In this document: piece by piece, positions 17,861 to 54,876 of the stretch
Layout: each line of letters opens with the position of its first letter
Position numbering within the stretch: the stretch's first letter is position 1
Assembly: GCA_003342815.1 (NCBI GenBank)
Contig: PTEX01000119.1
Location: 2,354,275 to 2,418,274, forward strand
Reading direction: 5' to 3'
From: Eudromia elegans
Taxonomy: Eukaryota > Chordata > Aves > Tinamiformes > Tinamidae
Length of the DNA: 64,000 bases
Made by a program: the position numbers and the translations under genes
Notes under the pieces: model-generated
Seen by the model: the letters and a program-made list of their open reading frames with translations, nothing else
Told to the model about the DNA's origin: nothing
Database searches by the model: none

Positions 17861-18379
17861 ATGACTGAGGTACAGCATATTATTAAATGTTGTCATCTGT
17901 GCTTTCACTGACTAATGTTTTCATTTCTCAATTTTAACTTTTTTTTTTTTTTTAACCATCATTTTTGGAAAAACAGTCAGCAAAATAATCTTGTTTTTCA
18001 AATTGTCCATTGTTCCACCCCAGTGAATATATGACTTAGATATCATGTGATCAAGAGTAGTCTGCATGGGTTCACAATCAGAAAACTGTGTTTAACAAAC
18101 CTGAGAACTTTCTATGATATAAGGCTTGGCTGCACATATTAGTAGGGGGCAATGTATTTTGTCTACCTTGAATTCAGTGTGACACTGTCTCCTACAACAT
18201 CTTCATAAGCAAAATCTAGATGAACACAAAATGAGGTAGACTGAGATTTGGCTGAAAAACAGAGCGATGAGGGTTGTGATCAGTGGTGCAAAATCCAGTT
18301 GGAGGCCTGTAGCTAGTAGTGTTTCCCAGGGTCAATGGCTGGTCCAATATTGTTCAACTTATCTATAATATGGATGAAG

Positions 18380-18608
18380 AGACAGATTGAAACACAAGAA
18401 GTTCCATCTATATGTGAGAAAGAACTTCTCCCCTTTGAGGGTGACCTGGACAGGCTACCTAGAAAGGTTGTGAAGTCTCTGGAGATCTTTAAAATCCACC
18501 TAGACATGACCCTGTGCCCATGCTCCGGGTGTCCCTGCTTGAGCAGGGGGGTTTGAGCTAGATGATCTCTAGAGGTCCCTTCCAATCTGATCCATTCTGT
18601 GATTCTGT
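18380..18608 (+). mobile_element. CR1 LINE 3' end nested in the old CR1
   Basis: The host CR1 reads to AATATGGATGAAG, equivalent to the NDLDEG codons, and resumes at TTCACCCTCAGAAAGTTTG, equivalent to CSLSKF. Between them lies a second CR1 end in the same orientation: GAAACACAAGAAGTTCCATC, GAGGGTGACC, GTGAAGTCTCTGGAGATC, then TTTGAGCTAGATGATCTC, CCCTTCCAATC and the tail ATTCTGTGATTCTGTG. Nesting shows the relative age of the two insertions. The left boundary is by eye. Confidence 0.8.
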
Positions 18609-18857
18609 GTCAGAATTCACCCTCAGAAAGTTTGTTGATGATACAAAATAGGGAGGAATGGCTGATACAGCAGCTCTGCTCCATTTCAGAGGGACCTGGA
18701 CAGGGTCCTACAAATGCAGGGCTCTGCACCTTGGGAGGAAGAACCTCATGCACCAGGACAGGCTGTGATTTGACCTGTGAAGAGAAGGATCTGAGAGTCT
18801 GGTGGACAATCAGACCGTGAGTCAGCAATGTGCTGCTGTGGACAAGAAGACCAGTTG

Positions 18858-18904
18858 TATTAGGGTACTAATGCAGTTATTATTAGGGTACTAATGCAAT
18901 GTTA
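18858..18904 (+). repeat. 23-bp tandem duplication inside the old CR1
   Basis: TATTAGGGTACTAATGCA occurs at 18858-18875 and again at 18881-18898. In the other CR1 copies the corresponding place has one unit (codons for GILGCIK), so the second is a slippage duplication that arose within this copy. It lies 20-odd bases before the 110-bp insert. Confidence 0.85.
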
Positions 18905-18921
18905 TAAGTAGGTCCAGTGAG

Positions 18922-19031
18922 GATTAAGTAACTAGTTTAGGATTAAACAACAGCAAGCTTGGGCAAGTCCCAGAGCAAGCAGGTGCTTCACATGTATCTC
19001 TGACACATCTCTGGCAATATACTTCAACACT
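18922..19031 (+). repeat. 110-bp duplicated unit, copy A (uninterrupted; inserted in old CR1)
   Basis: Starts GATTAAGTAACTAGTTTAGG and ends ATATACTTCAACACT. It matches, without a mismatch, 20512-20520 joined to 22181-22281. The surrounding old CR1 aligns on both sides (left TAGGTCCAGTGAGGATT against CAGGTCAAGGGAGGTGATT; right CTCTCCATAACC against CTCTCTACTCAG), so these bases are an insertion relative to CR1. It has no terminal inverted repeats, no TG..CA ends and no poly-A. A weak internal stem (GCTTGGG against CCC..AAGC around 18957-18982) is visible. Its origin is open: a short-range templated copy, or a very short mobile unit. Confidence 0.85.
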
Positions 19032-19343
19032 CTCCATAACCGTTCTTGATGAGGCCACTTCTAGAGTACTCTGTCCAGTTCTGGATCACCCAGTGCAAGA
19101 GAGACATAGAGCTACTGCAGCAAGTTCAGTGAAGGACTGCTAAAATGACTGAGGGATTGGAGCATCTCTCATAGAGGACAGATAGAGAGAGATGGAACAA
19201 TTTAGTTCTCTTTCAGAAAAAAGAAAATTGAGGTGAGATAGCTGAAAGTATCAGTTGGTGCAAGTATCTGAACGGAAGGTGTATAGAAGATGGATCCAGA
19301 CTGAAACACAAGTTTCATCTGAACATGAGGAAAAACTTCTACA

Positions 19344-20511
19344 AAAAAGTATTAGTAATCAGTTTTCTAGTTCAGTATTTATCCTTTTACATGTTTATTA
19401 ATACTTTTAATCTTTGACATATTTTTAGGCTAGAGCTTGGTTTGAACTGAGTTCAAATGGTGTTAAAACTTTCAGATTGCTTTAACTATAATGGAAGCCT
19501 TAGGAAAAATCTTAAATGAGAGTATTTCGAAATGAATTGTCACTAGTTTATGCGTGCCCTTGAGCAGGATTAGCATTTCTGTCAGTTACCTCTATCTTCA
19601 TGATATGGCACATTCAGCTTTACTGTTAGTATGGAAGTAAGCAGAGAAGCAATTTGTTAAATGATGAAGTCTTGAGCAGATCCAAATACTTGCTTCCATG
19701 CTGAAGCTATATGATTTTGTATGGATATCTATGGAATTAAAATTATTATTTTTTATTGTTGCCAGTACTGTGTTTGCTTCATATCATATTTCAGTTGTTT
19801 CTGCCTCTGCAAAGTCATGAGTAATACACTCATGCAGTTACATTTTAATTAGTTTCTACCATTCTACTAATTTGCAATGTTCAAAGCCAATGAGTTTTGA
19901 GAAGATTCTTATTTTCTTCAAGTGGGCTTTGACTGGTACTCTAGTGAGGGTTCTCTCTGTAAGTCCTCAGCAGACTTTTCCAAAGTTAGAAAGTTCTGCC
20001 TTATTGATGGTTACACATATGTGCAGTCCAGGCACAACTCTCCACCATCACTTAACAGCAATGCAAAGTGGTCAAGAACTGAGAAAAACCTCACTAGCAG
20101 AGGTAGGATTCATTTACTTAAGTGGAGATGCCTGGGGCCATTTTAGATCCCCCCCCTGTTCCCACCACAGCTGAAGTACCACAAGGCTTTTTTTTTTTGC
20201 CTTTTTTTTTTCCTGGGAAAATGAGCTTTAGGAGTGACAGAGGGCACCCACATGCTAAGGCATGCAACTCCCACGAATAATATATAGTAACAATGGAAGA
20301 ATTCTTTAATCCAAATGTGCGTTGTAAAGTGCCTGTTTGTTTGTATAGTTCCTTTTTCTTTGGCATCTTTATGAACATTGTGAATTTTTGTTTCATAGTA
20401 TGTAAAAAATGCCTCATTCATAGTTGCTGGCTGCAAATTGTACATTATTTGGTAATTAATTTGCGGATCGATCTCAGTTTCCTTCCTTTCCTGCTCCTAG
20501 TGTTGTGCAAA
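19344..20511. other. AT-rich non-coding DNA between the old and young CR1
   Basis: No gene or repeat family recognised. T-rich runs at about 20188-20212. The 100-codon frame at 19872-20174 shows no domain and overlaps others in a second plus frame, so I do not call it. Confidence 0.55.
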
Positions 20512-20520
20512 GATTAAGTA
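20512..20520 (+). repeat. 110-bp duplicated unit, copy B, left 9 bases
   Basis: GATTAAGTA directly precedes the 3' end of the minus-strand CR1. The same nine bases open copy A, followed there at once by ACTAGTTT. So this is the left end of copy B, cut off by the CR1 insertion. The last three bases, GTA, are one side of the CR1 target duplication. Confidence 0.85.
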
Positions 20521-22177
20521 GAATCATAGAATGGCTAGGGTTGGAAGGGACCTGTAGAGGTCATCTAGTCCAACCCCCCTGCACACGCAGGGTCCCCTAG
20601 AGCATGTGGCACAGGGTGATGTCCAGGTGGGTTTTGAAGATCTCCAGAGAAGGAGACTCCACCACCTCTCTGGGCAGCCTGTTCCAGTGCTCTGTCACCC
20701 TCACCGTTAAGAAATTCTTCCTCAAGTTCCTGTGGAACTTTTGGTGCCTCAATTTTTGGCCATTTCCCCTAGTTCTATCACTAGCCACCACTGAGAAGAG
20801 GCCAGCTCCCTCCTCCTCACTCCCTTCCTTGAGATATTTATATACATTGATCAGATCCCCTCTCAGTCTTCTCTTCTCCAGGCTGAAGAGGCCCAGCTCT
20901 CTCAGCCTTTCCTCACAGGGCAGATGTTCCAGACCCCTAATCATCTTTGTGGCCCTGTGCTGGACTCTCTCTAGCAGCTCCACATCCCTCCTGCACTGGG
21001 GAGCCCAGAACTGCACACAGGACTCGAGGTGCGGCCTCACCAGGGCTGAGTAGAGAGGCAGAATCACCTCCCTTGACCTGCTGGAGATGCTCTGCTTAAT
21101 GCACCCCAAGATCCCATTGGCCTTCTTGGCCACGAGGGCACACTGCTGCCTCATGGTCAACTTGTCGTCCACCATGACACCGAGGTCCCTCTCTGCGGGG
21201 CTGCTCTCCAGGAGGTCGGTCCCCAGCCTGTAGGCATGTCTAGGGTTATTCCTCCCCAGGTGCAGGACCCTACACTTGCCCTTGTTGAACTTCATGAGGT
21301 TACTCGCCGCCCAGCTGTCCAGTCTGTCCAGGTCCCTCTGGATGGCAGCACAGCCCTCAGGGCTGTCAGCTATTCCTCCCAGCTTAGTATCATCAGCAAA
21401 CTTGCTGAGGGAGCACTCCATCCCTTCATCTAGGTCGTTAATGAATAAATTGAACAGGACCGGACCGAGGACTGACCCCTGGGGGACACCACTATCCACA
21501 GGCCTCCAGCTGGACTCAGCACCGCCGATTACTACTCTCTGGGCCCTGTCATTTAGCCAGTTCCTAATCCACCTCACTGTCCACTCATCTAACCCACTCT
21601 TCTGGAGCTTGCCCAGGAGGATGCCGTGAGGGACGGTGTCAAAAGCCTTACTGAAGTCCAGATAGATGACATCCACCGCTCTGCCCTCATCTATCCATCT
21701 AGTCACCCCATCATAGAAGGCTATCAGGTTAGTCAAGCATGATCTCCCCTTGGTGAACGCATGCTGGCTACTCCTGAGCACCTTCTTCTCCTTCATGTGC
21801 CTGGAAACAGCAGTCAGGATGACCTGCTCCATTACTTTCCCAGGGACAGAGGTCAGGCTCACCGGCCTGTAGTTGCCCGGCTCCTCCTTCTTGCCTTTTT
21901 TGAAGACCGGGGTGACATTGGCTTTCCTCCAGTCCTCTGGCACCTCCCCCGTTCTCCAGGACCTTTCAAAGATGATGGAGAGCGGCTCGGCTAAGACGTC
22001 CGCCAGCTCACGTAGCACTCTGGGGTGCATCCCATCGGGGCCCATGGATTTGTGGGTGTTGAGTTTCCTCAGGTGCTCTCTAACCAAATCTTCCTCTACT
22101 CTGAGCAAGTCTTCCTCTCTCCAGTCCCTTCTCATTTCCCTAGTGTCAGGGACACTTAGGGGCTGCCCTTGAGAGTT
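20521..22177 (-). mobile_element. Young CR1 LINE, 5'-truncated, RT frame intact
   Basis: The 3' end is on the left: GAATCATAGAATGGCTAGGG is the reverse complement of the CR1 terminus. The 5' truncation is on the right at 22177. The element is about 1657 bp and holds the last 526 codons of ORF2 without a stop, then a 3'UTR of roughly 75 bp. Comparison with the uninterrupted 110-bp copy A gives exact borders: the empty site GATTAAGTAACTAG became GATTAAGTA, CR1, GTAACTAG, so there is a 3-bp duplication GTA (20518-20520 and 22178-22180). The endonuclease domain is absent, so it is immobile on its own. The open frame and clean match to the CR1 pattern mark it as the youngest CR1 fully inside the window. 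Confidence 0.95.
20597..22135 (-). CDS. CR1 ORF2 fragment: non-LTR reverse transcriptase (512 codons from first Met)
   Basis: This is the C-terminal part of the CR1 ORF2 polyprotein, the enzyme that primes reverse transcription of element RNA from nicked chromosomal DNA. Landmarks by residue: [10 protein letters not shown] 29-38, [13 protein letters not shown] 88-100, FTKGRS 127-132, motif [12 protein letters not shown] 158-168 (catalytic D160), motif [11 protein letters not shown] 216-225, motif C FADDT 246-250 (catalytic D248 and D249), [11 protein letters not shown] 321-331, then the conserved CR1 C-terminal region to [16 protein letters not shown] and a TAG stop. All three catalytic aspartates are present. 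The frame stays open 14 codons upstream of this Met to the truncation point at 22177, so the Met is internal, not the true ORF2 start. The endonuclease is missing and no promoter is present, so expression is unlikely. Plus-strand open frames across the same span are antisense shadows. Confidence 0.9.
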
Positions 22178-22281
22178 GTAACTAGTTTAGGATTAAACAA
22201 CAGCAAGCTTGGGCAAGTCCCAGAGCAAGCAGGTGCTTCACATGTATCTCTGACACATCTCTGGCAATATACTTCAACACT
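22178..22281 (+). repeat. 110-bp duplicated unit, copy B, right part (with CR1 target duplication GTA)
   Basis: From 22181 to 22281 the sequence equals copy A 18931-19031 base for base. The preceding GTA (22178-22180) is the second copy of the CR1 target duplication. Right of 22281 (GTTCTGTAATATC) the two loci are unrelated. Unlike copy A, copy B sits in sequence I do not recognise as repetitive, so it is the better candidate for the donor. Confidence 0.85.
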
Positions 22282-25200
22282 GTTCTGTAATATCAACATT
22301 CCACTTTATTTCTAGGATGCTCTTGAGATAAAATGACTGCTAGACAGCCAAAATTTTACAGAATTGTGGTTTTATGCTGCAGAAAATGAGAATTCTGTTG
22401 ATACTGCCAAATGCATTTTCAGTTTCTTAATTTGTTCTACTTTGCACATATAGAGTGTTGCTAGACACTGCGCTCTTATAGTCAAGAGACTGCTTTACTT
22501 TTCAGAAGCTTTTTTTGCTTTTATTTTATTTTTATGTTTCTTTTCACATCAGTTGCAACTGTTGTTGGTCTCTAGAATGTCATTCATTTCTTTCCTCTCT
22601 AATCATCCAAGGTGGAAGGCTTTGCTAGTTCTAGGCAACTGTTAACAGCTAAGATGTTTCTCAGCTTTGTGAGAAAATCCAAGAAGAAAAATTTATGCTG
22701 ATAGCTTTATGCAGTCTCTTTTAAACATTCTCCACTGTGTACAGTGCTCCTTCTAGAACAAGCTTACTGTTATGTCTTAGTGGTTTCCTGGGGCAGTCCT
22801 CAAGCATACATCATATTCAAATGACAATATCCCTTATTAGAGCAGTATTGAACTAATAATGAAACCAAAATGGCTCAGATATCTCAAAATACGTTAATGT
22901 GGTAGAAAAGCTATTTCCATCTCCTGCAATATCTATAGGTATTGTATATCCTCTTGACTATTAGAGATAGTCAATAAATGGAAAGCAGGAAGAACACGGT
23001 GGTGCTTAGATTTTAGCTTTCAGCTATGTATTGCATGTGATACACTGTCACTGAGCAGGCCAGGACAACCTGAAAAAAGAAAACCTATCAGGTTGTCTGC
23101 AGTAGAGCATTTGCTTACTGTTTTTGTCCAGATGAGAACAGGACTGGTATCTGCAGCAATTGAATGGTTCTTGCTATGATGTTTCTCCCTCCCTAAGAAC
23201 AGTATGTAACACAAAAAAGCAAGGTCCGTATTTATTTTAAAACTCTTTCAAGACAGTCTTCAGTCATTGTATACGTAAACTGACAAAAAAAAAAGTCTTT
23301 TAATAAAAAAAAAAATAGTAGAGGCTAATGGGCTGTTTAATTCCTATACTCCGGCAGGCTCTGAAGTCTCAGCCTCTGCATCATTGTTATTTCTCAAGAT
23401 GGTATCTTCATGTCTTGCAGAGCATCCTTTCCTTGCTACATGGTGAGTGAAGTCTGCAGAGAAATACAATGTAGAGATGCCAGGCAGAGTTAGGTCTGCC
23501 AGACTGCATGTTAGTTAAATTAGCAAACTGTAGCTTGTTACAACTTGAAATCCAGTCTGAGCCACAGCTGCAGCCCTGGACTAACACAGACTAATGATAT
23601 AGCTTTCCTGCAGCCTGGGCAAACAGGACAGTACATACTTAGTGAAGCAGCCTGAAAAACTGCTTTTCATATAGATTAAGAACAATACTAAAATTAGAAA
23701 CTCTGTTTATGGATGAGTCCACCTTCTGCTGTCTCCACAAAGTGAAAGAGGCTGGCTTTGGCATTTCTTCCAGAAGGGTAGCTTTCAATTTGAAACAGGT
23801 CGTGTAGATCCTGGACACTGAACCTGCAATATAGAACTTTATTTGAAGGGCAAAGATATGGCTGGCAATGGTAGGAAATTATAAACATGGCATGGTAACT
23901 CCAGGAAAAATATTTCTACATTTGTAATAACGTAGTGCTCATTAAATATCGATTTCACATTATAAAGCAGTTTGTATCATGCTGCCTCATGATTATATAA
24001 AAATAGATGTAATTAATTTCCGTAGCAATTAAAATAATTATCAACAGAAATAAGATGACATTTATAATCTAAATAGAAAAAAATCTTCTCATTAGTGTTC
24101 TTTACTGTAGCCAGTTTGGATGTGAGAATGTTAAATCCTTCCTTAAACAACTCTAACGTTTTACTGGTCTTGTTTAAATCCTTCTTTTTATGTTATGTGT
24201 ATATTGCTTGAGGTCCTTAGGGTCTCTAGCAGCCCACATAGAATAAGATTGGCTATTACAGCTATATAGAAATGTGGTTATCCTCACCTGCTTAATAGCA
24301 ATTATCTTGAGAAACAACCAACCAAAACCTAAATGAATGAAGTGTGGAGGTTAAAGGGAAATAATAGAAGTTGCAGCACTACATGCTGTAATTTCAAATA
24401 TCCTTCAGATCTAATTTGTATTAGATTCTTCAGACAGACAACTAAACAGATTTTTTTTTTGCACTCTTTTCAAACTCAGAGGTCTTCAAGGTTGTATAGG
24501 GAACTTCTAAGGATAAAAAATACAATGATTGTTTTTCACACAGGCTTGGCTGCTTACCAGGCTCTTATGCTGTCACATGTGAGATCTGTAGGAAAAGTCA
24601 ATGTTATATTTTACACTAATTTTATCCTTTTGTCTATCTATATTTGTATTTATAAATATGAGTATCATTTAATGTCTTGATATTTCATCTGACCAGGCAA
24701 TAAGAAAGTAAATAAAAACATAACTTAGGCTCATTAACAATGTGATGTTTCATGTTATATGAATTTCTGGCCTTTGGGTGGATTTTTTTTTTTTTTTTTA
24801 ACAATGTTATCTCTCAAATCTCTTCCACCTTTTTTATTTTTATTTTTTTTAGGAGGGAGAATAATGTGAACCAGTTTGAAAGAAAGGAAGAATTCCTCCA
24901 GCACCCAATCACCTATGCTGCTCACAGACATCATTCCGTCTTCTCTTTAGAGTAGCTGCCTAGTTAAGGTGAGCATCATTTTTGGGGTATAAAAAACTAT
25001 CTTACAATGAACTGTGGCAGAAGCAGGAACACCACTGATCTTCCTGGGCAGCAGTTCCTGTGTGATGCTAAGAATGCTGCTGAAGCCATCTACTTTTTTA
25101 ATTTTCAACTGAATTTGTTAATCTGTTTGTCATTTTTGACAATACTCAGAAGAGTAATATGCAGTTGCAACTGAAGTCAATAGAAATTTTGGCTGATATT

Positions 25201-54805: not shown

Positions 54806-54876
54806 AATACTAATACTAATACTAATACTAATACTAATACTAATACTAATACTAATACTAATACTAATAATAATAA
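54806..54876 (+). repeat. (AATACT)n hexanucleotide microsatellite, about 10 units
   Basis: Pure AATACT units, ending in AATAATAATAA. The array is perfect and so probably still variable in length. Confidence 0.95.

What the first reader, a model, noticed from the sequence alone, without database searches (positions are those of the whole stretch)
18922..22281. Identical 110-bp sequence present twice, one copy inserted in an old CR1 and the other split by a young CR1
Copy A (18922-19031) is contiguous and lies where the old CR1 should continue uninterrupted. Copy B is GATTAAGTA (20512-20520) plus 22181-22281. They agree at every base while the old CR1 around copy A is heavily diverged, so the duplication is much younger than that CR1 (or has been homogenised). 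Both copies are in the same orientation, about 1.5 kb apart before the CR1 arrived, and have no transposon-like ends. The left junction shares GATT with the CR1 sequence it interrupts. This fits a short-range templated insertion made during break repair or fork template switching; a very short unknown mobile unit is the alternative.
Basis: partly seen in the sequence, partly recalled or inferred. Interest (0 to 1): 0.75.

Follow-up and report, generated by a model that had tools for sequence, protein, structure and literature searches.

The report
Neighbour DNA pasted into old transposon
A 110-base stretch of DNA occurs twice, letter for letter, in this likely avian genome: once in unique sequence (later split by a young CR1) and once inside a decayed CR1 transposon about 1.5 kb away, where it was likely copied in during faulty DNA repair, a known kind of scar.

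Summary
A 110-bp unit at 18922-19031 (copy A) recurs letter for letter 1.5 kb downstream (copy B, 20512-20519 plus 22180-22281), where a later 5'-truncated CR1 splits it. The search of the held 944-Mb genome finds just these two places, and copy B's right flank at one, so a dispersed mobile unit is not supported. Eleven of 11 other CR1 copies that span the site lack the insert, and no other CR1 match in 264 kb breaks there. Copy A is a 106-bp insertion, B the likely donor. The left junction shares GATT with the donor; no poly-A/T tail, target-site duplication or terminal repeat was seen. These are features of the 'repair-mediated duplications' of Pace et al. 2009 (PMC2671141), with six in chicken. 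New details: a young CR1 in the donor (5 private changes in 677 bp) suggests the copying shortly preceded that insertion, and a 23-25-bp tandem duplication 16 bp from the insertion may be a second step of the same event. A datable new example of a known kind, not a new system.

The parts
18047..19294 (+). old, decayed CR1 (sense on + strand) that received copy A; also interrupted by a second CR1 3' fragment at 18386-18605
   Evidence: blastn to the young CR1: 18232-18362 71%, 18620-18703 77%, 19047-19195 69%; with looser scoring 18047-18389, 18613-18876 and 19047-19294 at 61-63%; alignment
18858..18905 (+). 23-25-bp tandem duplication inside the old CR1, 16 bp before copy A; the units differ by a 2-bp indel only
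   Evidence: TRF array 18861-18912; unit positions; not seen in the 11 other CR1 copies aligned
18922..18925 (+). GATT microhomology shared by the old CR1 and the left end of the donor
   Evidence: GATT at this place in 5 of 11 other CR1 copies, GATC in 5, deleted in 1; donor reads AAAGATTAAGT
18926..19031 (+). 106-bp inserted sequence (copy A, acceptor)
   Evidence: identical to copy B; absent from the 11 other CR1 copies
20512..20519 (+). left 8 bp of copy B (donor), GATTAAGT
20520..22179 (-). young 5'-truncated CR1 that landed in copy B; base 20520 (A) may be CR1 end or target
   Evidence: 40 scored genome matches to its 5' 680 bp at 96-100%, itself included; open frame with RVT_1; truncation point from 9 copies
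22180..22281 (+). right 102 bp of copy B (donor), followed by unique DNA
   Evidence: flank 22282-22800 found once in the genome

Best explanation
The 106 bases at 18926-19031 interrupt an old CR1 retrotransposon and are identical to unique DNA about 1.5 kb downstream, and they were likely copied from there when an end broken within the CR1 annealed through GATT to the neighbouring donor, was extended by a polymerase and then rejoined (synthesis-dependent strand annealing or a close relative). Shown: two identical copies and no third detected in this genome, same orientation, the CR1 continuing on both sides, GATT shared at the left junction, no tail, no target-site duplication. Inferred: the direction (B to A), the break and the polymerase step. 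A young CR1 inserted eight bases into the donor; since copy A is uninterrupted, the copying likely preceded that insertion.
For: Only two places found in 944 Mb; donor's right flank found once; 11 of 11 other spanning CR1 copies lack the insert and no other CR1 match in 264 kb is split there; 3-4-bp microhomology at the left, with a chance of 4 bp at one given junction of 0.005 and at either of 0.010; no other low-copy pair (28 bp or more, 80% or more, within 20 kb) found in 264 kb, two self-paired 28-nt palindromes aside. Size (106 bp), distance (1.5 kb) and place in a TE match the proximal repair-mediated duplications of PMC2671141: within 5 kb, mean 162 bp, microhomology 2-9 nt where present, no poly-A/T tract in 39 of 39 inspected. 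Young CR1 with 5 private changes in 677 bp; 0 changes in 110 bp is compatible with that age, P = 0.19.
Against: No sister species or reads could be examined, so the empty site is inferred from paralogous CR1 copies, not from orthologues. The first ~15 bases right of copy A align poorly with CR1, so the right breakpoint (small deletion or filler) is not fixed. The microhomology is short, and in 5 of 11 CR1 copies the site reads GATC rather than GATT (3 bp shared). The genome search can miss heavily diverged copies, and its own notice says that no match does not show rarity. At the upper limit of the young CR1's age the full identity of A and B has P = 0.02, which would then ask for homogenisation.
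Confidence: 0.88

Rival explanations
1. Replication-fork template switching (FoSTeS/MMBIR): a stalled fork in the old CR1 would first have slipped back, giving the 23-25-bp tandem duplication, then jumped to the donor by GATT, copied 106 bp and jumped back. Same product, but replicative and in several steps; a variant of the best explanation, so the two confidences overlap.
For: A tandem duplication, likely younger than the CR1, lies 16 bp from the insertion (9 bp in TRF coordinates); a random base of the surveyed 258 kb lies in or within 15 bp of an array as strong in 0.4% of cases, of any in 1.9%; within 50 bp 0.8% and 3.8%. It is not seen in the 11 CR1 relatives aligned. FoSTeS/MMBIR with 2-4-bp microhomologies has been proposed for a complex 7-kb pigeon allele (PMC9599118, passages).
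Against: The association was noticed afterwards, the two changes are separated by 16 bp of CR1-like sequence, and independent events cannot be excluded. Sequence alone rarely separates MMBIR from strand annealing (established knowledge).
Confidence: 0.3
2. The unit is a very short unknown mobile element that inserted twice.
For: Two identical copies; one sits in a transposon.
Against: No third place found in the genome; no inverted or direct ends, no target-site duplication, no A or T run of 5; the copies are 1.5 kb apart in the same orientation.
Confidence: 0.03
3. RNA-templated patch: a transcript of the donor was reverse-transcribed into a break, as proposed for class 2 templated sequence insertions.
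For: Class 2 insertions show microhomology and no tail (PMC5110952, passages).
Against: Those come from distant regions; here the donor is 1.5 kb away, where 39 of 39 inspected human cases lacked tails and were read as DNA repair (PMC2671141). No transcript of the donor was tested.
Confidence: 0.05
4. Assembly error: only one copy exists.
For: No reads were available.
Against: The copies have different flanks (old CR1 versus unique DNA), B is split by a 1.66-kb CR1 while A is not, and the unit ends where the CR1 alignment resumes.
Confidence: 0.03

Closest known systems
Repair-mediated duplications (RDs), Pace, Sen, Batzer and Feschotte 2009, PMC2671141 (abstract, sections 6, 7, 14, 17, 21 read; passages of others, with Table 3)
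   Same: Insertion of at least 50 bp interrupting a TE; a single other copy in the genome as donor, within 5 kb; length near 100-160 bp; junction microhomology; no poly-A. Chicken, the one bird screened there, has 6 counted.
   Different: The donor was later split by a young CR1, which gives a likely lower age bound; a tandem duplication lies beside the acceptor. No orthologous empty site was examined here.
Doublets / short paired duplications (Thomas et al. 2004; not held; known from its mention in PMC2671141 and from recall)
   Same: Short identical pair, same strand, about 1 kb apart (strand and spacing are recalled).
   Different: Described as 25-100-bp exact matches in mammals, worm and plant (recalled); here 110 bp and likely avian.
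Templated sequence insertions, class 2 (PMC5110952; passages seen)
   Same: Templated patch with microhomology, no tail or target-site duplication.
   Different: Class 2 patches come from distant regions and are thought to be mostly RNA-derived; here a local DNA donor is likely.
FoSTeS/MMBIR rearrangement at the pigeon recessive red locus (PMC9599118; passages seen)
   Same: A bird; short junction microhomologies (CA, CTGA); local template jumps proposed; a 56-bp duplication.
   Different: 7-kb rearrangement with inversions and deletions; here one direct 106-bp copy and perhaps a tandem duplication.

Membership tests
Repair-mediated duplication (PMC2671141) | TE interrupted by at least 50 bp, with the TE resuming within 30 bp of the consensus position | tested here: met
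   106-bp insert; old CR1 continues on both sides with only a few bases missing in the alignment to 11 CR1 copies; no curated CR1 consensus was available
[quoted passage not shown]
   2 places in all, 2 of 2 candidates scored
Repair-mediated duplication (PMC2671141) | Acceptor together with its flanks not found again (not a segmental duplication) | tested here: inconclusive
   The flanks of A are repeat and their own genome searches did not complete; the unit itself has one place with A's flanks, and identity between A and B ends at the unit's ends
Repair-mediated duplication (PMC2671141) | Donor more than 50 bp and less than 5 kb away | tested here: met
   1480 bp between the copies without the young CR1
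Repair-mediated duplication (PMC2671141) | Breakpoint with microhomology, small deletion or filler, and no poly-A/T tail | tested here: met
   GATT at left (3-4 bp by CR1 copy); no A or T run of 5 in the unit; right side possibly a ~4-bp deletion or filler, not fixed
Repair-mediated duplication (PMC2671141) | Orthologous empty site in a relative | not testable with these tools
   The genome search states that this genome has no relatives here
Non-autonomous transposon | Dispersed copies with constant ends | tested here: not met
   Two places only
Non-autonomous transposon | Target-site duplication or terminal repeats | tested here: not met
   Flanks printed and compared by eye; none of 4 bp or more seen

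The most novel reading that the evidence does not exclude
One germline replication accident with serial template switches wrote both the 23-25-bp tandem duplication and the 106-bp local copy into the old CR1, and the donor end that was used lay within 5 bases of the point where a CR1 soon afterwards integrated. The same fragile or nick-prone spot would then have served both as template and as retrotransposon target.
Probability: 0.12. Interest if true: 0.45.

Novelty: new member of a known kind. Interest (0 to 1): 0.25.

Why it matters
Such scars show how germline break repair adds short duplications to genomes. Few were counted in a bird (6 in chicken in PMC2671141, where TE content was 8%). 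This one carries its own clock: a CR1 with few private changes sits in the donor, so the copying is likely bracketed between old and young CR1 activity. Nested cases of this kind could date repair duplications without a sister genome.

Tried and rejected
Mobile unit: disfavoured, two genome places only. Copy B as a templated patch made at the 5' junction of the young CR1, with A as source: rejected because GATTAAGT on the other side of the CR1 also belongs to the unit and because A, not B, interrupts a repeat. A 2-3-bp target-site duplication (GTA) around the young CR1: rejected because GT is CR1 sequence in 9 of 9 other copies. Homogenisation by gene conversion: not needed at the central estimate, since 0 changes in 110 bp is compatible with the young CR1's age (P = 0.19; 0.59 and 0.02 at the limits), but not excluded. 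Rfam: no match in the window. Search for diverged copies of the unit inside the window: best other match E = 0.11. A selection effect (a copy with an insert would be split and not counted as spanning) was checked: of 33 matches only the two halves of the old CR1 and one copy truncated 69 bases further on end near the site. The genome search for relatives of the left half of the old CR1 did not complete, so whether the tandem duplication is unique to this locus rests on 11 CR1 copies in 264 kb. The first writing-out of copy B was one base too long (111 against 110); settled.

Full report
Observation. The unit is real. Copy A spans 18922-19031 and copy B is split by a CR1; the two agree at all 110 positions (with the split settled). 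In the right half the match starts at 22178, but GT at 22178-22179 is CR1 sequence: 9 of 9 fetched CR1 relatives carry GT there (GAGAGTTGT in 8, GAGAGCTGT in 1) and go on with C; 8 of 9 continue CAGC, while the window copy breaks off into the unit. The young CR1 thus ends at 22179 and went in at GATTAAGT/(A)ACTAG with no target-site duplication to be seen.

How rare. A 25-base piece had no match in 100 shuffled windows. In the held genome (944 Mb, 723 contigs) the search found the unit at two places, both here, and the 519 bases right of copy B at one; the tool warns that its search is not proof of rarity. In 264 kb (200 kb upstream plus the window, 5,837 N included) a self-comparison gave four pairs of 36 bp or more at 92% identity or more within 20 kb; three look like CR1 by my reading of the printed 51 bases, and the fourth is this pair. 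With a looser search (28 bp, 80%) and a copy-depth limit, three rows remained: two 28-nt palindromes matched to themselves, and this pair.

Which copy is new. The old CR1 around copy A is 69-77% identical to the young CR1 in three stretches, and with looser scoring runs from 18047 to 19294 at 61-63%; these figures compare different subfamilies and are not pure age. Removing 106 bases gives a continuous CR1; the alignment score rises only slightly, 425 to 431, because with the insert left in, the aligner matches parts of it to CR1 at random. The stronger evidence is comparative: of 33 CR1 matches in the 264 kb, 13 span the site; one is the young CR1 itself and one has a gap there, and all 11 others lack an insert. 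No other match is split at the site except the old CR1. So A is the acceptor. B lies in unique DNA and is taken as the donor by inference.

Junctions. Left: the CR1 reads GATT here in 5 of the 11 copies, GATC in 5, and one has a deletion; the donor reads GATTAAGT, so 3-4 bases were shared. Four shared bases at one given junction have a chance of 0.005, at either 0.010. Right: no more than one base shared by eye; the next ~15 bases fit CR1 poorly, so a small deletion (about 4 bp) or filler is possible. There is no A or T run of 5 in the unit and no target-site duplication by eye.

Neighbouring tandem duplication. At 18858-18905 two units of 23 and 25 bp follow each other and differ by a 2-bp indel only. 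By eye they share changes that the other CR1 copies lack, and none of those 11 shows the extra unit, so this duplication too is likely younger than the CR1. The gap to copy A is 16 bp. A random base lies in or within 15 bp of so strong an array in 0.4% of cases (13 arrays), of any of the 75 in 1.9%; within 50 bp 0.8% and 3.8%. This hints at one complex event but was found after the fact.

Age. The young CR1 has an open frame with a reverse transcriptase domain (RVT_1, E 7e-32; the frame includes seven bases of copy B). The 40 genome matches that were scored, of 3,450 candidates, are 96-100% identical, the window copy included. Against the 9 closest of the 39 others it differs at 7-11 of 677 positions and has 5 private changes; the 9 others have 1-4 private ones each under a similar rule. 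Five in 677 is 0.74%, 95% range 0.24-1.7%; zero differences in 110 bp bound the depth of the duplication at 1.3% per copy. As copy A has no CR1, the copying likely preceded the insertion, and by these bounds not by much. At a recalled avian rate near 2e-9 per site and year this means a few million years; the rate comes from no call.

Known kind. PMC2671141 (Pace et al. 2009) found 824 such closely linked duplications in human TEs by the same logic, and 6 in chicken; none of 39 inspected proximal cases had a poly-A/T tract, and the authors read all 39 as imperfect break repair. This locus meets four of the six features listed under membership, one is inconclusive and one could not be tested. 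The paper's reading is synthesis-dependent strand annealing; template switching, proposed for a pigeon allele (PMC9599118, passages), would leave a similar scar. Four literature searches (15 of 79 listed, 24 of 24, 15 of 17, 10 of 540) showed no later bird survey of this class among the listed titles, which does not prove that none exists.

Limits. No sister species, no reads, no named species; that the genome is a bird's rests on CR1 content and genome size and is inference.

Noticed in passing
window 18386-18605: A CR1 3' end (about 220 bp, 76% to the young CR1) lies inside the old CR1, whose body continues on both sides: an older nested CR1 insertion.
   Followed up: partly
window 20597-22186, minus strand: The young CR1 keeps a 529-codon open frame with RVT_1 (its first seven bases lie in copy B), and the first look of the genome search had 3,450 candidates, which suggests a recently active CR1 lineage in this species.
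   Followed up: partly
L029, near base 680, and window 22179: One of the 9 fetched CR1 relatives departs from the family one base after the point where the window's young CR1 is truncated: perhaps a shared 5' truncation point.
   Followed up: no
window 54806-54875: Near-perfect (AATACT) array, 11.7 copies.
   Followed up: no
window 22078-22118: A 21-bp imperfect tandem pair inside the young CR1.
   Followed up: no
window 19042-19046 and 22282-22286: GTTCT follows copy B directly and recurs 10 bases to the right of copy A; it may mark a return microhomology with filler, or be chance.
   Followed up: no
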